NCBI GenBank assembly: GCA_021803215.1
Contig: JAJZLV010000016.1
Coordinates: 1-38,440, forward strand
Direction: 5' to 3'
DNA from: Actinomycetes bacterium
Lineage (GTDB): Bacteria > Actinomycetota > Acidimicrobiia > Acidimicrobiales > Bog-793
DNA: 38,440 bases
Shown piece after piece: positions 17,275 to 27,780 of this stretch. The stretch's first letter is position 1. Each line of letters begins with the position of its first letter. The position numbers and the translations under genes are program-made. Under the pieces are notes generated by a model that did no database searches, was not told the origin of the DNA, and saw only the letters and a list, made by a program, of their open reading frames with translations.

Positions 17275-17886
17275 ATGGGCGAGTCGCGGGCCGCCAAGCG
17301 GCGGCCGCGGGGCGAGGAGCCGACCAGTTGCGCCGAGCGGCTGGCCGACGTGGCGGGGAAGCTCGGCCGGCGCCGGTATGTCGTCGCCCTCGGTGCAAGG
17401 GCTTGGCTCCAGGCCGCCGGCCTCGAGGTTGAGCTGGCCGCCGGGCAGCGGCCGGATCGGCCGCCGCCGGCCGAACGGGCCATCTTGCTCGAGAGGAGCA
17501 AGCTCGGCCTGGAGGCGGTCGGGTCGCTCCGGCTCGACTGGGTCGCTCCCGACAAGGCGGCCGGCCTCGAGCTCTCGGGGCTGAGTCTTCCCGGCGACTG
17601 CTGGAACGGCGCCGGGGCGCTGACGGAGCGGAACGTCCTTCTTCTCCACGCCGGCATCCGGCGAGCCAGGCGAGGCGGGGCCGGCGAGGTCTTCTTCCTC
17701 TCCGAGCCGGCGCTGCTCGCCGCCCTGATCCGCTCCTGCTCGCTCTTGCGCCTCGATCGCTCCCGCCCGGCCCCGAGCGGTCTCGCCTGGGCGGCCGCCA
17801 CGCTCCTGCCGGGGCGACGGGTGAGAGGCTTCGAGGCGGTGCTGCTCGAAGGCGCCGGCCTCGAGCGGCTGGCACTGTTCCTCTGA
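17275..17886 (+). CDS. Unknown protein divergent from the nickel/cobalt permease
   Basis: 203 residues, not recognised. Basic, Arg-rich start, then alternating hydrophobic and charged segments with no clear membrane helix and no obvious catalytic motif; two cysteines (SCSLL and PGDCWNG regions) and one near the N-terminus. ATG 17275 has GGGGAGG at a suitable distance, which favours this strand over the overlapping opposite frame. The divergent position and shared palindromes raise the possibility of a role in metal homeostasis, but that is inference only. Confidence 0.6.
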   Translation: MGESRAAKRRPRGEEPTSCAERLADVAGKLGRRRYVVALGARAWLQAAGLEVELAAGQRPDRPPPAERAILLERSKLGLEAVGSLRLDWVAPDKAAGLELSGLSLPGDCWNGAGALTERNVLLLHAGIRRARRGGAGEVFFLSEPALLAALIRSCSLLRLDRSRPAPSGLAWAAATLLPGRRVRGFEAVLLEGAGLERLALFL

Positions 17887-17900
17887 GCCTTTCGGCTCAG
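17883..17900. terminator. Bidirectional hairpin between convergent genes
   Basis: CTGAGCC-TTTC-GGCTCAG, a perfect 7-bp stem containing the stop codons of both flanking genes (17884-17886 plus strand, 17897-17899 minus strand). No U-run follows on either side, so termination efficiency is uncertain. Confidence 0.5.
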
Positions 17901-18226
17901 TCGCTCTCCCACCACTCGAGGAAGGTCACCAGCCCACCGTCTTGCCAGACCTGCAGGCCGCAACCGGGCGGGAGGTCCTCGGTCGCCGGGGCGGCGAAGA
18001 GGACGAGGCCGTCACCCGGTGGCCGATCACCGGAGAGGAGCAGGCGGAGAAGGACGACCCGGTCCGTCACCTCGGCCACGAGCCGCTCGGCGCCCTCATC
18101 GTCGAGAAGGACGAGACGGCGAGTGCGCAGCTCGCGCCCGAGCCGGTCGACCCTCTCTTCCAGCCTGGCCAGCCGGGCAGCCAGCCCCCCGTTTGCCTCT
18201 TCGCTCTCGCCGCGCTGCTCGTCCAT
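17897..18226 (-). CDS. Small acidic protein with N-terminal coiled coil, unknown
   Basis: 109 residues, not recognised. Residues 14-45 (LAARLARLEERVDRLGRELR) form a heptad-like helix suited to dimerisation, followed by a compact region ending in GGLVTFLEWWESD. ATG 18226 is preceded by GAGAGGA. A TACCCT box at 18303-18308 on the minus strand may be its -10. It is convergent with the previous gene and transcribed in the same direction as kdpC, from which it is separated by 152 bases. Confidence 0.65.
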   Translation of the reverse strand: MDEQRGESEEANGGLAARLARLEERVDRLGRELRTRRLVLLDDEGAERLVAEVTDRVVLLRLLLSGDRPPGDGLVLFAAPATEDLPPGCGLQVWQDGGLVTFLEWWESD

Positions 18227-18378
18227 CGCCCCGTCCTCTCACTGTCAGAAGGAGGGCCCGAGGCCGATAGCGGTCGGGGGCGCCGCCTCCCGACGAGGCT
18301 TCAGGGTAAATGGGGGGTGTTCGCCGGGGCCGGCGGCCCGAGCTCGATCCGGGAACGGTCGGCTCGCCCCCGTCCAAC

Positions 18379-18942
18379 TCAGGGCGCCTTTGTCGCCGAC
18401 TCGAGGTGGGCGAGCGACTGGTTGAGCCGCAGGACGTTCACGTAGGGCGATCCGAGGAAGCTCCAGTAGGGCCCGACGACATGGCTGGTGACGAGGCGCC
18501 GGACAGCCGAGACGGAGAGGTGGTTCGCCTTTGCCACCGCCGCAACCTGGACGTAGGCCGAGTGCGGGCTGATGTCGGGGTCGACGCCGCTTCCCGAACC
18601 GGTCACGAGCTCGTTGGTCGGCTTGATCCCCTCCTTCTCGAGGCGGCGGACCTGGGCCCGGGCGAAGTCGAGCAGCAGCTTCGACTTCGGGCCGTAGTTC
18701 TGCGAGCCCGTTGCCGAAGGGTTGTCGGTGTCGGGGCGTCCCTGGAACCACCTCGGCCCGTTCCAGTGCTGGCCTATGAGGCTCGAGCCCAGGTAGCCCC
18801 GGGGCGCGGCCACGAGGTCACCGCTTGCCTGGTGGCTGAAGAAGGCCTGCCCGATCCCGGTGATCAAGAAGGGATAGGCGAGTCCGAGCAGGACGAAGAA
18901 GATCACGGACGCAACGACGGCCCGCCGCAGGTGGACGAGCAT
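18379..18942 (-). CDS. kdpC: Potassium-transporting ATPase KdpC subunit
   Basis: 187 residues. KdpC is the single-pass accessory subunit of the KdpFABC K+ pump and is needed for assembly and ATP binding. A single N-terminal helix (about residues 9-31) is followed by the extracytoplasmic domain with GSSLIGQHW, WFQGRPD, NPSATGSQNYGP and the closing VNVLRLNQSL, all KdpC hallmarks. ATG 18942 overlaps the kdpB stop (TGATG) and has GAGGTGG six bases upstream; the GTG nine bases further up is less likely. Confidence 0.96.
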   Translation of the reverse strand: MLVHLRRAVVASVIFFVLLGLAYPFLITGIGQAFFSHQASGDLVAAPRGYLGSSLIGQHWNGPRWFQGRPDTDNPSATGSQNYGPKSKLLLDFARAQVRRLEKEGIKPTNELVTGSGSGVDPDISPHSAYVQVAAVAKANHLSVSAVRRLVTSHVVGPYWSFLGSPYVNVLRLNQSLAHLESATKAP

Positions 18943-21011
18943 CAGTACCACCTCACTGCTGTCAGGAAGAGGTCGATCAACTTGATGAAGGCGAAGGGGG
19001 CGATGAGGCCGCCGACTCCGTAGATGAGGACGTTCCGCCGGAGGATCTGAGCGGCGCTCATCGCCCTGAAGCGCACCCCGCGCAGGGCGAGGGGGATGAG
19101 GGCGATGATCACCAGGGCGTTGAAGATGACAGCCGAGAGCACGGCGCTCGTCGGCGAGTGGAGCCCCATGATGTTGAGCGCCTTCAACTGGGGGTAGGCG
19201 GCGACGAAGAGCGCCGGGATGATGGCGAAGTACTTGGCGACGTCGTTCGCGATGGAAAAGGTGGTGAGCGCTCCTCGTGTGATGAGGAGCTGCTTCCCGA
19301 TCTCGACGATGTCGAGCAGCTTGGTCGGGTTCGAGTCGAGGTCGACCATGTTCCCAGCCTCCTTGGCGGCGGTCGTGCCCGAGTTCATCGCCACCCCGAC
19401 ATCGGCCTGGGCGAGGGCCGGGGCGTCGTTGGTCCCGTCACCCGTCATGGCGACGAGCTTCCCGCCCTCCTGCTCGTGCTTGATGAGGGCCAGCTTCGCC
19501 TGCGGCGTCGCCTCGGCGAGGAAGTCGTCGACCCCGGCCTCGGAGGCGATGGCCGCCGCCGTGAGGGGGTTGTCGCCGGTGATCATGACCGTGCGGATCC
19601 CGAGGGACCGCATCTGGTCGAAGCGCTCCCGGATGCCCTCCTTCACGACGTCCTTCAGCTCGATGACGCCGAGGATCTTCGAGCCGTCGGCCACCGCCAG
19701 TGGCGTCGAGCCCGCGCGGGAGGTTGACTCGACGATCGTGTCGAGATCGGGCGGCACCGCCCCTCCCTGCTCGACCACCCAGCGCTTCACGGCCTCGGCG
19801 GCGCCCTTTCTGATCTTGCGACCGTCGAAGTCGAGGCCCGACATCCTCGTGGTCGCCGTGAAAGGGATGAAGAGGTGCTCGGCCCCGAGCTCGCGCTCTC
19901 TTATGTTGAAGCGCTCCTTCGCCAGCACGACGACCGAGCGGCCCTCGGGGGTCTCGTCGGCGAGCGAGGCGAGCTGAGAAGCGTCTGCCAGCTCCTCCTC
20001 GCCGGTGTCCCCGACGGGTATGAAGCGCGAGGCCATCCGGTTCCCGAGGGTGATCGTGCCCGTCTTGTCGAGCAGCAGGGTCTGGGTGTCGCCGGCTGCC
20101 TCGACCGCCCGGCCGCTCATGGCGAGGACGTTTCGCTGCACCAGGCGGTCCATGCCGGCGATTCCTATGGCGGAGAGGAGGGCGCCGATCGTCGTCGGGA
20201 TGAGACAGACGAGAAGGGCGACGAGGATGACGACCGAGACGTTGGCGCCGGCGTAGTGGCCGAAGGGCTCGAGAGCCACCACCACCGGCAGGAAGATGAT
20301 GGTGAGGGCCGCCAGGAGGATCGTGAGGGCGATCTCGTTCGGCGTCTTCTGCCGGCTGGCGCCCTCTACGAGCGAGATCATCCGGTCCATGAACGTCTGG
20401 CCGCGCTCGGCCGTGATCTGGACGACGATGCGGTCCGACAAGACCTTGGTGCCACCGGTGACGGCCGAGCGGTCGCCGCCCGACTCGCGGATGACAGGAG
20501 CCGACTCGCCTGTGATGGCGGACTCGTCGACCGAGGCGATGCCCTCGATGATCTCCCCGTCCGAGGGGACGAGATCTCCTGCCTCGCAGACGACGAGGTC
20601 CCCCTTGGCGAGAGAGGCGGCAGGCACCCGCTCCTCGCCCCGGCCCGGCAGCAGCTTTCGCGCCTCGGTCTCAGAGCGCATCTTCCGGAGCGTGTCGGCT
20701 TGGGCGCGCCCGCGGCCCTCTGCCACCGCCTCGGCGAAGTTGGCGAAGACGACCGTGAGGAACAGCCAGCCCGTGATCGACCAGTCGAAGAGGCCCGGGT
20801 GGACGATCGACTCGACCAGGGTGACAACGGTCCCGACGAGGACCACGAACATCACCGGGTTGCGCACCTGCACGCGGGGGTCGAGCTTCTTGAAGGCCTG
20901 ACCGGCCGCCGGGACGATGATCTCCGGGTCGAACAGCCCGCGGGACCGGGCCACTCCCCTCGCCAGCTCTTTGGACTTCGGCGCCGGGCCGGCCGCCACG
21001 ACCCGGTCCAT
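18942..21011 (-). CDS. kdpB: Potassium-transporting P-type ATPase KdpB subunit
   Basis: 689 residues, the normal size. Catalytic P-type ATPase subunit that hydrolyses ATP while K+ enters through KdpA. The phosphorylation motif DKTGT has its Asp at 315; the actuator motif TGES is at 167-170; [16 protein letters not shown] provides the hinge. All residues required for activity that I can check are intact. ATG 21011 overlaps the kdpA stop by one base (TGATG), and the stop overlaps kdpC in the same way, so subunit synthesis is probably coupled. Confidence 0.98.
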
Positions 21012-22702
21012 CAGAAGAACCTCCCGTGAATCAGCTGCTCGACGATCGGACCGAGCGAGACGGCGGGGAAGAAGGTGAGCGCCCCGATGATGATGATGAC
21101 GCCGATGACGAGGCCGGTGAAAAGCGGCGTGTCGGTGCGGAAGGTCCCGGCCGAAGCCGCCACGACCTGCTTGCCGGCGAGGACTCCGGCAAGAGCCAGG
21201 ACCGGCACGATGATGGCGAACCGGCCGAGCAGCATGGCGATGGCGCCCGAGATGTTGTAAAAGGCCGTGTTGCCGTTCAGGCCGGCAAAGGCCGAGCCGT
21301 TGTTGTTGCCCTGCGACGTGAAGGCGTAGAGGATCTCGGTGAAGCCGTGCGGGCCGGCATTGAGGGCCCCGGCCCGGCCGGCCGGCAGGGCCGAGGCGAT
21401 CGCCGTCAGGACGATGACGGTGATCGGCATCACGAGGGCCGCGAGAGCCGCCAGCTTCACCTCCCGCGACTGGATCTTCTTCCCGAGGTACTCCGGTGTT
21501 CGCCCCACCATGAGCCCGCCCAGGAAGACGGCGATGATGGCGAAGACCAAGATGGTGTAGAGGCCGCTTCCGACCCCGCCCGGCGTCACCTCGCCGAGCA
21601 TCATCCCCGAGAGGAGCATCATCCCGCCGATCGGGGTGTAGGAGTCGTTCGCCGAGTCGACGCTCCCGGTCGAGGTCTGGGTCGAGACGATGTTGTAGAG
21701 GGTCGACTGCGAGTAGCCGAAGCGGGACTCCTTTCCTTCCATGTTGCCGCCCGGCTGGTGCTTCACCCCGGCAGCTGCCACCGCAGGGTTGCCCTGCGAC
21801 TCGGCGTAGGTGGCGACGCCGAGCCAGACGCCGAAGAGGATGGTCATGGCCGCCAGCAGTGCCACTCCCTGGCGGACATTCCCCACCATCTTGCCGAAGG
21901 TGTAGGTGAGCGAGATCGGGATCGTGAGGATGAGGAAGACCGAGATGAAGTTCGTGAGGCCGGTCGGGTTCTCGAACGGCATCGCCCCGTTGGCGTTGTA
22001 GCTTCCGCCACCGTTCGTGCCGAGCTGCTTTATCACCTCCTGGGAGGCGAAGGGGCCCCGGGGGATCACCTGGTGGACGCCGTTCAGAGCGTCATGGACA
22101 GAGACCGGCCCGGCCAGGGTCTGGATGGCGCCCTCGGCGACGAAGATGACGGCGAAGACGATCGATATCGGAAGCAGGACGTAGTAGATGCCCCGGACGA
22201 GGTCGACCCAGAAGTTGCCGATCGTGGAGGACTCCCGGCGGACGAGGCCGCGGACGAGGGCGATGGCGACCGCGATGCCGACCGAGGCGCTCACGAAGTT
22301 CTGCACGGCGAGCGCCCCCATCTGGGAGAGGTAGGACATGGTCGACTCGCCGGAGTAGTTCTGCCAGTTGGTGTTCGTTACGAACGAGACAGCGGTGTTC
22401 CACGAGAGGGCCGGCGCCACGGCTCCGAGGTGCGCCGGGTTGCCCGGCAGGCTCCCTTGCAGGCGGAACATCCCGTAGAGCAGGAGGATCGCCACGCCCG
22501 AGTAGACGATGAGCGCCCCGGCGTAGCGCTGCCAGCTCTGCTCCCGCTGCGGGTCGACGCCGAGCAGGCGGTAGGTCGGGCGCTCGAGCCAGCCGAGGAA
22601 GCTCACCCGTCCCTCGTAGACGGCGGCCATGTAGGAGCCGAGGAAGCGCCAGGTGAGGGCGAGGCAGGCGACGAGCAAGAGGATGGTGAGAAAGAAGTTC
22701 AT
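21011..22702 (-). CDS. kdpA: Potassium-transporting ATPase KdpA subunit
   Basis: 563 residues, about ten transmembrane helices; the K+-selective channel-like subunit of KdpFABC. Selectivity-filter loops are visible: [34 protein letters not shown] and [14 protein letters not shown], each with the Gly/Asn-rich core typical of KdpA. ATG 22702 is preferred over the GTG nine bases upstream, because it overlaps the kdpF stop as TGATG and gives the canonical short N-terminus [10 protein letters not shown]. Confidence 0.98.
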
Positions 22703-22791
22703 CAGAACCACTCGGCCTTGAACATCGCCACGCCGAGGTAGGCGAAGAGCACGACCGAGAGGGCCAGGAGTATCCCGTCGGTGATGCTCAT
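22702..22791 (-). CDS. kdpF: KdpF stabilising subunit
   Basis: 29 residues read directly from the minus strand: a single hydrophobic helix (about residues 6-22) starting MSITDGILLALS and ending FKAEWF. KdpF is a lipid-like peptide that stabilises the KdpABC complex. The C-terminal KAEWF matches the usual K-P/A-E-x-F end of KdpF. The stop shares one base with the kdpA start; the ATG overlaps the stop of a second small reading frame upstream (ATGA). Confidence 0.93.
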   Translation of the reverse strand: MSITDGILLALSVVLFAYLGVAMFKAEWF

Positions 22792-22871
22792 ACGTGCTCC
22801 AGCGCCCGCACGAGGCCGAGCATCAAGAGGACGAAAAGGAGCGTTCCGAGAACGGCGAAGAGGTCAGCCAT
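22791..22871 (-). CDS. 27-codon-scale membrane microprotein upstream of kdpF
   Basis: ATG at 22869-22871 opens a frame of 26-27 codons (minus strand) ending TGA, with the stop overlapping the kdpF start as ATGA; the three-base overlaps through kdpC follow the same logic. The peptide starts MADLFAVLGTLLF, forms one hydrophobic helix and ends RALEHV, so it is polar at both ends and KdpF-like in size and topology. GGAAGG lies about nine bases before the ATG. This suggests a second small subunit or regulator of the Kdp complex. Similar short frames in front of kdpF may exist in other actinobacteria; I could not check. Not experimentally known to me. Confidence 0.65.
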
Positions 22872-22894
22872 GCGCCAGAGCCTTCCGGCCCCTC

Positions 22895-22943
22895 GCGTCG
22901 CCGTGGCGTCAAAAAGCCGTCCAGAGCGTCAATTCCGCGTCAA
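22895..22943 (-). promoter_or_regulatory. Paired direct repeats, candidate KdpE operator
   Basis: Plus-strand GCGTCAA occurs at 22906, 22926 and 22937, and an imperfect copy GCGTCGC at 22895. Start-to-start distances are 11, 20 and 11, so the repeats form two pairs with one-helical-turn spacing, the layout used by OmpR-family dimers. On the minus strand each perfect copy reads TTGACGC, so one of them may also serve as a -35. They lie 24-72 bases upstream of the microprotein start and after the KdpD-half stop. Confidence 0.5.
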
Positions 22944-22962
22944 CGGGGACTCGTCTCCCGGC

Positions 22963-24111
22963 TCAGTCCTCGCTGGCCCGGTTGGCGAGCGCCCTCGGCT
23001 CACGGCGGGCGATCACGTGTACGTCGACGTCGCAGTCCGATGCGAGGCGGATCACCTTCGAGACGATCGAGCCTCTCGTCAGCTCCTCGAGCCGGCTCCG
23101 CCGGCTCGAGCCGAGCACCACCTGGGTGATCTGGTGGGTCAAGGCGTACTCCATGAGAGCCCGAGCCGTGTCGTCGCCCTCTATCTCCCTCCACTCGGCC
23201 CCGAGCGCCGAGGCCAGCCGGCGCAGCTCGGAGAGTCTGGCGTCGTCACGGCGGGAGGACTCCGAGGAGGTGACGTGGACGACGTAGAGGTCTCCTTTCA
23301 CCCGGGCCGCCAGCCGGGCGGCGCGGCGCATGACGCCTCCGGTGCCCTCCGTGGCGTCGACCGCCACCATGATGCGCTCTGTCACGTCCCAGATCTGCCT
23401 CTGGTGGCGGGCTGCCAGCCGCTCTATCAGGTGCTCGTCGACCTCGTCTGCGACGAAGCGCAAGGTGAGCTCTCTGAGGGCGGTGAGGTTGTCGGTCGAG
23501 AAGAAGTTGTTGAGGGCGTCCGGCACCTTGTCGGGCGGGTAGATGTTGCCGTGGGCCATCCGGCGCCGCAGCTGCTCGGGCGACGAGTCGATCAGCTCCA
23601 GCTGGTCGGCTCGCCGGACCACCCAGTCCGGCACCCGCTCGCGCACCCTGGCGCCGGTCATCTGCTCGACGGCGTCGGCGATGGACTCGATGTGCTGCAC
23701 GTTCACCGTCGAGATGACCGAGATGCCGGCGTCGAGGATCTCGAGCACGTCCTCCCAGCGCTTCTCGTGCGCCCCTTCCTCGGGTACGTTCGTGTGGGCC
23801 AGCTCGTCGATGAGGGCCACATCGGGATGGCGGGCGATCACCGCTGCCGTGTCCATCTCCTCGAAGACCGAGCCGTGGTAGGCGACCTTCTTCCGAGCCA
23901 GCACCTCGAGGTCGCCGATGGCAGCCGCCGTGTAGGGGCGCTCGTGCGGCTCGACGAAGCCGACCACTACGTCAGAGCCGCGCTCGGCCCGGCGCTTGCC
24001 CTCGTCCAGCATGGCGACGGTCTTGCCGACGCCGGCCGAGGCGCCGATGTATATCCGGAACCTGCCGGCTGGCTCCACAGCCTCGGTCAGCTGAATCGTC
24101 TCATCGGCCAT
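22963..24111 (-). CDS. kdpD: KdpD sensor half (KdpD domain plus USP domain, no kinase)
   Basis: 382 residues holding only the cytoplasmic N-terminal half of KdpD. Residues 17-230 are the KdpD domain with Walker A GASAGVGKT (23-31) and Walker B VALIDELAHTN; residues about 250-375 are a universal-stress-protein domain ending VDVHVIAR. The transmembrane, HisKA and HATPase parts are absent and are encoded by the divergent gene at 24145. ATG 24111 is supported by the conserved beginning and a GAAGG upstream. A stop codon closes the frame cleanly, with no sign of decay. It heads the minus-strand kdp operon. Naming it kdpD is a convention; it is a half protein. Confidence 0.93.
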   Translation of the reverse strand: MADETIQLTEAVEPAGRFRIYIGASAGVGKTVAMLDEGKRRAERGSDVVVGFVEPHERPYTAAAIGDLEVLARKKVAYHGSVFEEMDTAAVIARHPDVALIDELAHTNVPEEGAHEKRWEDVLEILDAGISVISTVNVQHIESIADAVEQMTGARVRERVPDWVVRRADQLELIDSSPEQLRRRMAHGNIYPPDKVPDALNNFFSTDNLTALRELTLRFVADEVDEHLIERLAARHQRQIWDVTERIMVAVDATEGTGGVMRRAARLAARVKGDLYVVHVTSSESSRRDDARLSELRRLASALGAEWREIEGDDTARALMEYALTHQITQVVLGSSRRSRLEELTRGSIVSKVIRLASDCDVDVHVIARREPRALANRASED

Positions 24112-24144
24112 GGGCGTAACCTTCGCGTCGAGGTGTACCCCCAC

Positions 24145-25695
24145 ATGATGCCGCTCCGGCACAGGTTGGCCGGGTCGATCGCCGCCGTGGCGACGATGGG
24201 CCTGCTCGTGGCCGTCATGCTGCCCCTCCGGGCGCATCTCGCGATCGCCGTCGTGGCGCTCGTCCTGGCGGTGCCGGTCGTCGTGGCGGTCGTGATGGGA
24301 GGATCCTCGAGCGGGGTGCTCGCCGTCGCTCTCGGCTTCCTCGTCTACGACCTCCTCTTCATCCCCCCCTATGGGACCCTGCCGGTCGGCCGGGCGGAGA
24401 ACTGGGTGCCCCTCGGCGTCTATGTGATCGTCATGCTCCTCACCTCGCGGGTGGTCGACCGGCTCTGGCGGGCCGAAGCGGCCAGCCGGGAGAGCGAGCA
24501 CGACACGGCCAGGCTCTTCGACCTCTCGGAGCTGCTCGTGGCCGACCGGCCGCTCGAGGAGCTGACCGACATCGTCGTGCGCGACGTCCGCGAAGCCTTC
24601 GGGCTGTCGGCCGTCGCCCTGCTCATGCCGGAGCCGTCGCCGGCGGCCGCCGGGGGGGCGGTGAGGGTGGTCGCCCGCTCGGGCCGGCTCCTCGACGAGG
24701 AGGAGCTGCGCCTCGTCCTGCCGGCCGGAGGCTCGCCTTCGAGCCTCCGGGCGGTCTCGCGCCGCTCGGACGGGAGCGACGGCGAGCCGCTCGAGACGGT
24801 GGTGCTCACCATCGGGGACCGTCCGGTCGGGCTCCTTGCCATCGCCGGACGCCCGCTCGGGCGACGTCGCCGGGAGCTTTTGAGCGCCTTCGCCAACCAC
24901 ATCGCCCTTGCCATCGAGCGGACGATGTTGAGAGCCCAAGCCGTCCGGGTTGGCATCCTCGAGGAGGTGGACCGCCAGCGCCGGACGCTCCTCGGCGCCG
25001 TCTCGCATGACCTGCGGACTCCCTTGGCGACCATCAAGGCCTCCGCCACAGCTCTGCTCGACTCTTCCCTCCCCCTCGGGACCGAGGAACGGGCGGAGCT
25101 GACCGCGCTCATCGAGACGCAGTCGGACCGGCTCGAGCGGGTGGTGGCGAACCTGCTCGACCTGAGCCGCATCCAAGCCGGCGCCCTCGTGGCCGAGATC
25201 GAGCCTCTGACGCTCGGAGAGCTGCTCGCCGGCTCGCTCGAGGCGCTCGGACCGACCTCGTCGACGGTCGAGCTTCGGACGGCGGCCTTCAGCTCCTCGA
25301 CCGTCAGCGTCGACAGGGTCCTCGTGGTGGAAGCTCTCGTGAACGTGCTCGAGAACGCCGTCAGGTACTCGCCTCCGCGGGCAAAGGTGGTCGTCTCGGC
25401 CTGCCCGCTCCGAGGCAGGAGGAGGATGCGCCTCGTCATCGCCGACGAGGGCCCCGGGATCCGGCCCGAGGACAGGGGGCGCGTCTTCGACCTCTTCGAG
25501 CAGGGGAGCGGGCCGGGGCTGCAGCCCTCTGGGGGCACCGGGCTCGGGCTCTCCATCGCGAGGGCCTTCCTCGAGGCCCAGGGCGGCTCCATCTCGGTCG
25601 ACGAGCAGGCGGTGGCAGGCACGCGGATGGTCGTCGAGCTCGAAGAGCCGCCCGAGCGGCCGCTGCTCGACGAGAGCGCCCGAGGGCGGCCATGA
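24145..25695 (+). CDS. KdpD kinase half (DUF4118-GAF-HisKA-HATPase)
   Basis: 516-residue membrane histidine kinase matching the C-terminal half of KdpD. Residues about 8-110 are the four-helix DUF4118 module, with FLVYDLLFIPPYGTLPV matching the KdpD helix signature. A GAF-like domain spans about 130-265. The phosphoacceptor motif VSHDLRTPLATI has His288; the N-box is ENAVRYSP, and DEGPGI and GTGLGLS form the ATP lid. ATG 24145 (or 24148) is chosen; an in-frame GTG at 24133 is possible. Only 33 bases separate it from the divergent sensor half. Its stop overlaps kdpE (ATGA). It presumably phosphorylates KdpE when the sensor half signals low K+. Confidence 0.92.
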   Translation: MMPLRHRLAGSIAAVATMGLLVAVMLPLRAHLAIAVVALVLAVPVVVAVVMGGSSSGVLAVALGFLVYDLLFIPPYGTLPVGRAENWVPLGVYVIVMLLTSRVVDRLWRAEAASRESEHDTARLFDLSELLVADRPLEELTDIVVRDVREAFGLSAVALLMPEPSPAAAGGAVRVVARSGRLLDEEELRLVLPAGGSPSSLRAVSRRSDGSDGEPLETVVLTIGDRPVGLLAIAGRPLGRRRRELLSAFANHIALAIERTMLRAQAVRVGILEEVDRQRRTLLGAVSHDLRTPLATIKASATALLDSSLPLGTEERAELTALIETQSDRLERVVANLLDLSRIQAGALVAEIEPLTLGELLAGSLEALGPTSSTVELRTAAFSSSTVSVDRVLVVEALVNVLENAVRYSPPRAKVVVSACPLRGRRRMRLVIADEGPGIRPEDRGRVFDLFEQGSGPGLQPSGGTGLGLSIARAFLEAQGGSISVDEQAVAGTRMVVELEEPPERPLLDESARGRP

Positions 25696-26402
25696 CCCGG
25701 GGACCGGTGCTCGTGATAGACGACGACCCGGCGCTTCGCAGGGTGATGAAGATCGCCCTGGAGGCGCTCGGCTACGAGGTCGCCCTCTCTCCGACCGGGC
25801 GGGCCGGCCTCTCGGAGGCGGCTTTAGGCACACCCGCGGCTGTGGTGCTCGACCTGGGTCTGCCGGACCTCGACGGCGTCGAGGTGTGCCGGCGCCTTCG
25901 GGAGTGGACCGATGTCCCGGTCATCGTCTTGTCGGCCGACGCCAACGAGGAGCGCAAGATCGAGGCGCTCGACTCCGGGGCCGACGACTACGTCACCAAG
26001 CCCTTCTCTATGGGCGAGCTGCAGGCGCGCCTGAGGGTGGCCATGCGCCGGGCCGGGCGGACCGACTCTCCGACAGCCGGGGGGGACTCGGGGGTCATCG
26101 AGGTCGGACCGCTCCGCCTCGACCCGCTCCACCTCGAGGCCTGGCTGGAGGGCGAGCCGCTCGAGCTCACCCGGCGGGAGTTCGGCTTCCTCGCCTACCT
26201 TGCGAGGAACGAGGGCCGGGTCTGCACCCAGCACATGATCCTCTCGGCCGTGTGGGGCCCGGCATACGTGCGCGAGACGCGATACCTGCGCGAGTACGCC
26301 TACCGGCTCAGGCGAAAGCTGGGCGACGACGACGGCAGCATGCTCCGCACCCGGCCAGGCATCGGCTACCAGCTCGTAGCCCCCGATGTACCGTCCCGCT
26401 GA
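25692..26402 (+). CDS. kdpE: KdpE response regulator
   Basis: 236 residues, OmpR/PhoB family. The receiver domain has the acidic pair Asp11/Asp12, phosphoacceptor Asp54 (VVLDLGLPDLDG) and Lys103 (YVTKPF). The C-terminal winged-helix domain includes LELTRREFGFLAYLARNEGRV and the GIGYQLV end. In E. coli KdpE activates kdpFABC. The ATG overlaps the kinase stop by four bases. Candidate binding repeats lie at 22895-22943. Confidence 0.95.
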   Translation: MTRGPVLVIDDDPALRRVMKIALEALGYEVALSPTGRAGLSEAALGTPAAVVLDLGLPDLDGVEVCRRLREWTDVPVIVLSADANEERKIEALDSGADDYVTKPFSMGELQARLRVAMRRAGRTDSPTAGGDSGVIEVGPLRLDPLHLEAWLEGEPLELTRREFGFLAYLARNEGRVCTQHMILSAVWGPAYVRETRYLREYAYRLRRKLGDDDGSMLRTRPGIGYQLVAPDVPSR

Positions 26403-26500
26403 TCGGGGCTGCCAACGGTCCAGGAAAGCGCGGCTCCCCGTCGCGCAGAAGGTCGCCTTCGCTTGGACAGCGCCTTGCCCGGCGCGCTAGGCAACCAGCT

Positions 26501-26947
26501 GTGGCCACTGTCGAAGCCTCGGCCGAAGGGATCGTCCATGCCAGCGCGGACCGCGTCTACGCCCTCATCGCCGATCCAGCCCGGCACCAGCACTTCCTGC
26601 CGCCGGCGTTCTCCGACTTCAAAGTCGTTGCCGGAGGGAGTGGGGCCGGCAGCGAAGTCGAGTTCACGGTGACGGCGGGCGGGCGCCAGCGCCGGTACCA
26701 CATGGTGGTCTCCGAACCTGAGCCGGGACGGGTGCTCGCCGAGTCGGACGCCAACTCCTCGCTCGTGACGACCTTCACAGTCACCGCCGCTGGCGAGAGC
26801 TGCCGGGTCCGCATTCACACCGCCTGGCAGGGCGCCGGCGGGCTGGGCGGTCTCTTCGAGCGGCTCTTCGCTCCAAGGGCCATGAAGAGCATCTACGAGG
26901 AGGAGCTGGGGCTCCTCGACTCCTACGCCGCCACGGCGGCTGACTGA
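26501..26947 (+). CDS. SRPBCC-family (START/Bet v1-like) protein
   Basis: 148 residues with the polyketide-cyclase/START-like fold: IVHASADRVYALIADPARHQHF at the N-terminus, a run of beta strands (VEFTVTAGGRQRRYHMVV), and a C-terminal helix beginning with LFERLFAPRAMKSIYEEELGLL. Members bind hydrophobic ligands in a deep pocket. GTG 26501 is the best start in frame but has no obvious ribosome site, so the start is uncertain. It lies 98 bases after kdpE and ends 39 bases from a convergent gene. Confidence 0.8.
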   Translation: MATVEASAEGIVHASADRVYALIADPARHQHFLPPAFSDFKVVAGGSGAGSEVEFTVTAGGRQRRYHMVVSEPEPGRVLAESDANSSLVTTFTVTAAGESCRVRIHTAWQGAGGLGGLFERLFAPRAMKSIYEEELGLLDSYAATAAD

Positions 26948-26986
26948 AGCAGCTCCGGCCCGGCCCCGCTCACCGGGACCAGCAGC

Positions 26987-27337
26987 TCAGAGAGCCTCGC
27001 TGCCGGCGAACTCCTCGAAGGCGGCGAAGGCGCGAGGGCCGTGGACCGTGGCCGGCCCACCGTTCATGACGAGCGCGACCGAGAGAGCCTCCGCCACCTC
27101 CTGGCGGCTCGCCCCGTTGCGAGCCGCCGCCCTGGCGTGGGAGGCGATGCAACCGTCACAGCCGCGGGTGACCGCGATCGCAAGGGCGATGAGCTCTTTC
27201 ACCCGGCGTGGCAAGGCGCCGTCCGCCATGGCCGCTCCGTGCAGTGCGGCGAAGCCGGACCAGGCGTCCGGCTGGGAGGAGCGGAGCCCTCTCACGGGCC
27301 CGCGCAGCTCGTTGAGGATCTCCTGTGCCTCGCCCAT
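26987..27337 (-). CDS. AhpD/carboxymuconolactone decarboxylase-family protein
   Basis: 116 residues. The active-site pattern E-x11-C-x2-C-x3-H is complete (Glu48, Cys60, Cys63, His67 in RGCDGCIASHARAA), as in AhpD-like peroxidatic or disulfide-reducing enzymes. It probably takes part in peroxide removal or thiol exchange. ATG 27337 is preceded by GGGAGG at six bases; the longer open frame upstream has no family similarity. Confidence 0.9.
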   Translation of the reverse strand: MGEAQEILNELRGPVRGLRSSQPDAWSGFAALHGAAMADGALPRRVKELIALAIAVTRGCDGCIASHARAAARNGASRQEVAEALSVALVMNGGPATVHGPRAFAAFEEFAGSEAL

Positions 27338-27780
27338 CCCGACCTCCCGGCGCCGATCTGCCAACCGGTCTAGCGTTTTTTGTCCGGCATCCGGGCAAGA
27401 GGGGGGCGCCTCAGGCCGCCGCGCGGTGGCGATGCCGGTCGCGGCCCGCTCTGACGGGCTCACGGGCTCACCACCCGCCCGGCCACGACCGGCGTCAAGG
27501 TGATCGCGAAGAACTGAGCGCGCCTGGTCAGCGCTGGCCAGAGCCGCCGCAGCACGCCGCGGCGACCACCAGAGCTAGGGGAGCAACGGGAGCCCCACTC
27601 CTTCCGCCTCCGCCAGGGCGGGAGGCCGCCCTTGCCGCCTCGGCTCCGGCCCGCCCGGCCAGAGACACCCTCGCCGCCCGTCGGGCGCCAGGCAGCCGGT
27701 GCTCTCGGAGCCGGTGGCCGCAGACGGGCACCATCAAAGCTTCCCGCGGGGACCGGCGGCTTCAGCCGCCAGGGGAACCG

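What the first reader, a model, noticed from the sequence alone, without database searches (positions are those of the whole stretch)
22963..25695. KdpD split into two divergently transcribed genes
The sensor half (KdpD and USP domains, 382 residues, minus strand) and the kinase half (DUF4118, GAF, HisKA, HATPase, 516 residues, plus strand) are separate, complete reading frames with start codons 33 bases apart. In most bacteria they form one protein of about 900 residues; truncated, sensor-only KdpD is known in some cyanobacteria. Here both halves are kept, the sensor with the pump genes and the kinase with kdpE, so the signal must pass between two proteins and their ratio can be set independently. 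The domains and layout are seen; the signalling consequence is inference.
Basis: partly seen in the sequence, partly recalled or inferred. Interest (0 to 1): 0.75.

Follow-up and report, generated by a model that had tools for sequence, protein, structure and literature searches.

The report
Split KdpD: separate pump and gene kinases
In this actinobacterium the potassium sensor KdpD is two separate proteins, an old and already described arrangement, but the half thought to shut off the potassium pump has a rebuilt ligand pocket in exactly those lineages that deleted the gene for its presumed signal molecule, c-di-AMP.

Summary
A 382-aa KdpD/Usp protein (22963-24111, -) and a 516-aa DUF4118/GAF/HisKA/HATPase kinase (24145-25695, +) have start codons 33 bp apart, and the genome holds no other KdpD. 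It is no artefact: in the order (Acidimicrobiales, by named relatives) 84 stand-alone sensors were studied. Unfused kinases and sensors each form one old clade apart from fused KdpD; 37 of 66 sensors with a kinase on the fragment sit divergently beside it.

KdpD on two chains is already described (Silberberg 2024): the N-terminal chain is an atypical serine kinase for KdpB, the other the histidine kinase for KdpE. So 'the signal must pass between two proteins' is not required.

What seems new: the published signal for short KdpDs is c-di-AMP. Here disA is cleanly missing between radA and carD, and the sensor's c-di-AMP contact (S. aureus S244) is Asp. Across the order 14/14 sensors in genomes with verified disA loss have an altered pocket versus 1/57 in disA+ genomes (5 independent losses; correlated-evolution p about 4e-6). 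A conserved triple TTGAC repeat, probably the KdpE box, lies between sensor and kdpF. Function is inferred, not assayed.

The parts
22963..24111 (-). stand-alone KdpD/Usp protein (kdpD-N), putative atypical serine kinase for KdpB; 382 aa
   Evidence: PF02702 E 3e-88, Usp E 2e-14; Walker A G-x5-GKT (G23-T31), Walker B D102/E103 and R184 kept
23356..23358 (-). codon of Asp252 in the Usp pocket (equivalent of S. aureus KdpD Ser244, a c-di-AMP contact)
   Evidence: alignments
24112..24144 (.). 33-bp spacer between the two divergent start codons; overlapping -10-like elements inferred (TAACCT on +, AAGGTT on -)
   Evidence: sequence; conserved in near relatives; no consensus sigma-70 site by scan
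24145..25695 (+). stand-alone histidine kinase (DUF4118 membrane part, GAF, HisKA with His288, HATPase); 516 aa
   Evidence: Pfam matches; motifs
25692..26402 (+). kdpE, response regulator (receiver plus Trans_reg_C), 236 aa, overlaps the kinase gene by 4 bases
22906..22944 (-). triple direct repeat GTTGACGCGGAATTGACGC..TTGACGC upstream of kdpF: probable KdpE box
   Evidence: first two repeats 11 bp apart; only match in the genome; kept in 6 of 6 near relatives; 21/61 split-type versus 0/62 fused-type loci
22788..22871 (-). 27-aa single-membrane-helix peptide MADLFAVLGTLLFVLLMLGLVRALEHV, conserved in near relatives
22702..22791 (-). kdpF, 29 aa
   Evidence: PF09604 E 1.8e-6, over cut-off
21011..22711 (-). 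kdpA
   Evidence: PF03814 E 3e-229
18942..21011 (-). kdpB, with TGES motif; Ser170 (codon 20502-20504) is the presumed target of the serine kinase
18379..18951 (-). kdpC
   Evidence: PF02669 E 1e-51

Best explanation
This is a two-chain KdpD system inherited from an old unfused lineage in Acidimicrobiales. The two chains carry the two separate enzyme activities of E. coli KdpD. The membrane histidine kinase with its K+-sensing parts phosphorylates KdpE, which binds a repeat box in front of kdpF and switches on the pump genes when K+ is low. The soluble KdpD/Usp protein is an atypical serine kinase that phosphorylates Ser170 of KdpB and stops the pump when K+ is ample. In most of the order the Usp domain of this stand-alone kinase probably reads c-di-AMP. 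In the window's lineage disA was deleted and the pocket was changed to Asp, as in Usp proteins that bind adenine mononucleotides, so the serine kinase now answers to another ligand (AMP, ATP or cAMP) or to none. Shown here: gene structure, domains, active-site residues, antiquity and spread of the split, disA deletion, its association with pocket changes, conserved box. Inferred: the activities, the ligand and the role of the box.
For: Domains and motifs. The serine-kinase function of the KdpD domain, its action in a short KdpD, its stimulation by c-di-AMP and the existence of two-chain species are published (PMC11018627). Unfused kinases of the order form one clade of 65 (98*), fused ones another; 91 short sensors form one clade (support 100; one exception, L043). 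KdpB carries TGES in 123/123 sequences. disA is absent from G000, and radA is followed directly by carD where relatives have radA-disA-carD. Pocket altered in 14/14 sensors with verified disA loss versus 1/57 with disA; 5 independent losses, likelihood-ratio p 4e-6 (df 4) and 4e-7 (df 2). In an unbiased scan the two conserved columns that depart most in genomes without a detected disA are the equivalents of S244 and A242. S244D abolished c-di-AMP binding but kept about half of AMP binding in S. aureus (PMC8214093). Repeat box.
Against: No activity, ligand or binding was measured. The adenine-stacking Trp39 of E. coli is Val32 here, though this site varies widely in both short and fused KdpDs. 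Actinobacterial Usp domains with Thr at the S244 site are not known to bind c-di-AMP: the M. tuberculosis KdpD Usp, which keeps one of five motif residues, bound it poorly. Short KdpD of Deinococcus radiodurans, a relative of the c-di-AMP-stimulated D. geothermalis protein, has Ala there, so the residue alone does not predict binding across phyla. The sensor tree has weak inner branches (14 of 81 starred), and the tool's conservative pair test had too few supported pairs to decide. Fused KdpDs in G311 and G317 keep Thr without disA.
Confidence: 0.68

Rival explanations
1. The two halves still work as one sensor: the KdpD/Usp protein docks on the membrane kinase and modulates its kinase or phosphatase activity, so the signal crosses between the proteins.
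For: Divergent adjacency within 400 bp in 37 of 66 sensors that have a kinase on the fragment; both chains share a long common history; in E. coli the N-terminal domain matters for signalling by KdpD (PMC2714519, title and abstract listed).
Against: In at least 16 loci the kinase is away from the sensor, which sits behind kdpC; the published short KdpD of D. geothermalis acts on KdpB without a kinase partner; the kinase chain carries the known K+-sensing domains.
Confidence: 0.2
2. After disA loss the Usp domain is simply a relaxed relic: the serine kinase is constitutive or controlled only by its amount, and Asp252 has no ligand.
For: Several altered lineages carry different residues (Phe, Leu, Asn, Val), as relaxation would give.
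Against: In the window's clade Asp is uniform in 9 of 9 sensors and arose again in G304, and the rest of the Usp core is kept; an Asp in this loop is fully conserved in ATP-binding Usp proteins.
Confidence: 0.3
3. Assembly inversion, frameshift or recent break of a full-length kdpD.
For: Window and genome are draft assemblies (148 contigs).
Against: Same layout in independent genomes; sensor and kinase each belong to old unfused clades.
Confidence: 0.01

Closest known systems
Two-chain KdpD: KdpD/Usp serine-kinase chain plus TM/GAF/DHpCA histidine-kinase chain (Silberberg et al. 2024, PMC11018627)
   Same: Same division of domains over two proteins; Walker motifs, KdpB TGES target and a kdpE partner kept.
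   Different: Reported mainly for Acidobacteriota and Chloroflexota; no divergent layout heading the pump genes, disA loss or pocket change was described in the text read here.
Short KdpD of Deinococcus (D. geothermalis, D. radiodurans)
   Same: KdpD plus Usp only; in D. radiodurans behind kdpC, with a separate HK/RR pair near the pump genes.
   Different: The D. radiodurans kinase beside the pump is annotated as a HAMP type; the D. geothermalis protein is stimulated by c-di-AMP, for which this genome has no synthase.
Full-length KdpDE (E. coli; most Actinomycetota)
   Same: Same domains in total, same pump.
   Different: One chain; a separate clade for both halves; no TTGAC repeat box upstream of kdpA (0/62).
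S. aureus KdpD Usp domain bound to c-di-AMP (PDB 7ji4)
   Same: Same fold (Foldseek E 1e-9, TM 0.89 by target length).
   Different: S244 is Asp252, S246 is Thr254, N249 is Thr257 and Y271 is His279 here.

Membership tests
Two-chain KdpD (serine-kinase chain plus histidine-kinase chain) | KdpD domain with Walker A G-x5-GKT and Walker B DE on a chain without histidine-kinase domains | tested here: met
Two-chain KdpD (serine-kinase chain plus histidine-kinase chain) | Adenine-coordinating Trp39/Arg190 pair | tested here: inconclusive
   Arg kept (R184); Trp is Val32, but the site is variable in short and fused KdpDs of the order
Two-chain KdpD (serine-kinase chain plus histidine-kinase chain) | Separate TM/GAF/DHpCA kinase with kdpE | tested here: met
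Two-chain KdpD (serine-kinase chain plus histidine-kinase chain) | KdpB target serine in TGES | tested here: met
   Ser170; 123/123 KdpB
Two-chain KdpD (serine-kinase chain plus histidine-kinase chain) | Serine-kinase activity on KdpB | not testable with these tools
   needs purified proteins
c-di-AMP-controlled short KdpD | Diadenylate cyclase in the genome | tested here: not met
   no PF02457 match; disA missing between radA and carD
c-di-AMP-controlled short KdpD | c-di-AMP motif (A/G/C)xSxSx2N(Y/F) of Firmicutes KdpD | tested here: not met
   A-V-D-A-T-E-G-T and His279
c-di-AMP-controlled short KdpD | c-di-AMP binding or stimulation | not testable with these tools
   needs a binding assay
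Full-length KdpD | Both halves in one reading frame | tested here: not met

The most novel reading that the evidence does not exclude
Stand-alone KdpD serine kinases are matched to c-di-AMP: each time a lineage of Acidimicrobiales deleted disA, the Usp pocket of this kinase was remodelled, and in the window's clade it switched to an adenine-mononucleotide pocket, so that K+ pump shut-off now follows AMP/ATP or cAMP in place of c-di-AMP.
Probability: 0.3. Interest if true: 0.72.

Novelty: new variant of a known kind. Interest (0 to 1): 0.5.

Why it matters
It shows in one old lineage that the two enzyme activities of KdpD live and evolve as separate genes. It also gives a natural comparison, five separate disA losses, for the open question of what input controls the pump-inhibiting serine kinase. 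If binding tests agree, genomes of one order would document how a second-messenger receptor is rewired when its messenger is lost.

Tried and rejected
Assembly inversion or recent break: rejected by relatives and trees. Full-length KdpD elsewhere: none. c-di-AMP riboswitch or other Rfam element in 17500-27500: none. Consensus sigma-70 promoters in the spacer region: none. A KdpE box in the 33-bp spacer: 13/18 similarity by eye in the window only, not kept in relatives, so not claimed. The 'not found' status of disA in eight sensors with intact pockets was not trusted: radA was not found either in those assemblies, or the contig ends behind it. treekit's independent-pairs test had only 2 supported pairs and is uninformative. 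The AlphaFold model is of moderate quality (pLDDT 73, pTM 0.51) and was used only for domain folds.

Full report
Observation. The minus-strand gene 22963-24111 codes for a KdpD domain plus a Usp domain and nothing else. The plus-strand gene 24145-25695 codes for a DUF4118 membrane part, a GAF domain and a complete histidine-kinase core. Their ATG codons are 33 bases apart. kdpE follows the kinase with a 4-base overlap. After the sensor come a 27-aa membrane peptide, kdpF, kdpA, kdpB and kdpC. The genome has a single PF02702 match.

How common it is. In 298 genomes of the order, 104 carry a KdpD domain over the cut-off. With the family survey added, 84 stand-alone sensors were kept for study. 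Named relatives place the group in Acidimicrobiales. Of 66 sensors with a separate kinase on the same fragment, 37 have it divergent within 400 bp. The second large arrangement has the sensor directly behind kdpC. The window's own order, with the sensor heading the pump genes, occurs in G241, G313, G314, G315 and G174 and, with the kinase further off, in G317.

Age of the split. A tree of kinase halves puts 65 unfused kinases of the order in one supported clade and the fused KdpD kinases of Actinomycetota in another. A tree of sensors gives 91 short ones in one clade against the fused ones, with one exception in the order, L043, whose sensor comes from the fused lineage. The two-gene state is therefore old. 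Whether it came before fusion or from an early fission cannot be told, because the outgroups are few.

What the halves do. Silberberg and colleagues (PMC11018627) showed that the E. coli KdpD domain is an atypical serine kinase that phosphorylates KdpB Ser162 in TGES and inhibits the pump. They showed that the KdpD/Usp-only protein of D. geothermalis does so under c-di-AMP, and they reported species with both activities on separate chains. The sensor here keeps Walker A (G23, G29-K30-T31), Walker B (D102, E103) and the adenine-site Arg (R184); the Trp of that site is Val32, but it is variable throughout the order. KdpB has TGES with Ser170. So the simplest reading is two separate regulators and not one broken sensor.

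The signal of the serine kinase. The genome lacks any diadenylate cyclase domain. This is a true loss: in DAC+ relatives the order is radA-disA-carD, and in the window's genome radA is followed after about 200 bp by carD. The same empty place is seen in G241, G312, G314, G315, G317, G221, G303, G304, G301, G311, G110, G228 and G157. Mapped on S. aureus KdpD bound to c-di-AMP (PMC8214093, PDB 7ji4), the window has Asp252 at the S244 contact. An S244D change in S. aureus abolished c-di-AMP binding and kept about half of AMP binding.

Association. An unbiased scan of 183 well-conserved columns ranked residues 252 and 250 (S244 and A242) first and second for departure in genomes without detected disA. 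Taking disA+ genomes and verified losses only, the pocket is altered in 1/57 versus 14/14 sensors (Fisher p 6e-14, which ignores kinship). On a tree built from the KdpD domain alone there are five disA changes and six pocket changes, and a correlated-evolution likelihood-ratio test gives p 4e-6. The inner branches of the sensor tree are weak, the choice of 'intact' residues rests partly on the data, and the Usp domain of M. tuberculosis KdpD shows that actinobacterial Usp domains need not bind c-di-AMP well. The association is solid as a pattern; its chemical meaning is inference.

Control of the pump genes. Between the sensor's stop and kdpF lies a triple repeat, GTTGACGCGGAATTGACGC...TTGACGC (22906-22944, -). 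The first two repeats are 11 bp apart, as expected for an OmpR/PhoB-type regulator (own knowledge). The pattern TTGAC-N6-TTGACGC occurs once in the genome. It is kept in six near relatives although the flanks differ. A one-mismatch form is upstream of kdpA in 21 of 61 split-type loci and 0 of 62 fused-type loci, with 1% background. I take it as the KdpE box. The 33-bp spacer has conserved overlapping -10-like hexamers in near relatives, but no consensus promoter.

Verdict. The split is real, old and of a described kind. The part worth following is the coupling of disA loss to the pocket of the stand-alone serine kinase. No paper found in the held library reports it, which is not proof that none exists.

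Noticed in passing
window 22788-22871 (-): A 27-aa single-helix peptide (MADLFAVLGTLLFVLLMLGLVRALEHV) precedes kdpF and is conserved in G241, G313, G314, G315 and G317; no Pfam family matches it.
   Followed up: partly
L194, L195, L198, L199 (G311, G317, G312): Genomes of the window's family carry a full-length KdpD divergent from a kdpA (in G317 and G312 beside the split type); its Usp keeps Thr at the S244 site even without disA.
   Followed up: partly
L206 and L211 (G304): One genome has two stand-alone sensors, one with Val at the A242 site and one with Asp at the S244 site, an independent origin of the Asp.
   Followed up: partly
L043 7661-8716 (G164): Short sensor of the fused KdpD lineage combined with a kinase of the unfused lineage: a swapped half.
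   Followed up: no
G082:C49:91063-91636: KdpD domain with in-frame TAG codons, probably a decaying pseudogene.
   Followed up: no
all KdpD sensors of the order: The adenine-stacking Trp39 of E. coli KdpD is replaced by Cys, Tyr, Phe or Val nearly everywhere, in short and fused forms, so Trp is not a general requirement.
   Followed up: partly
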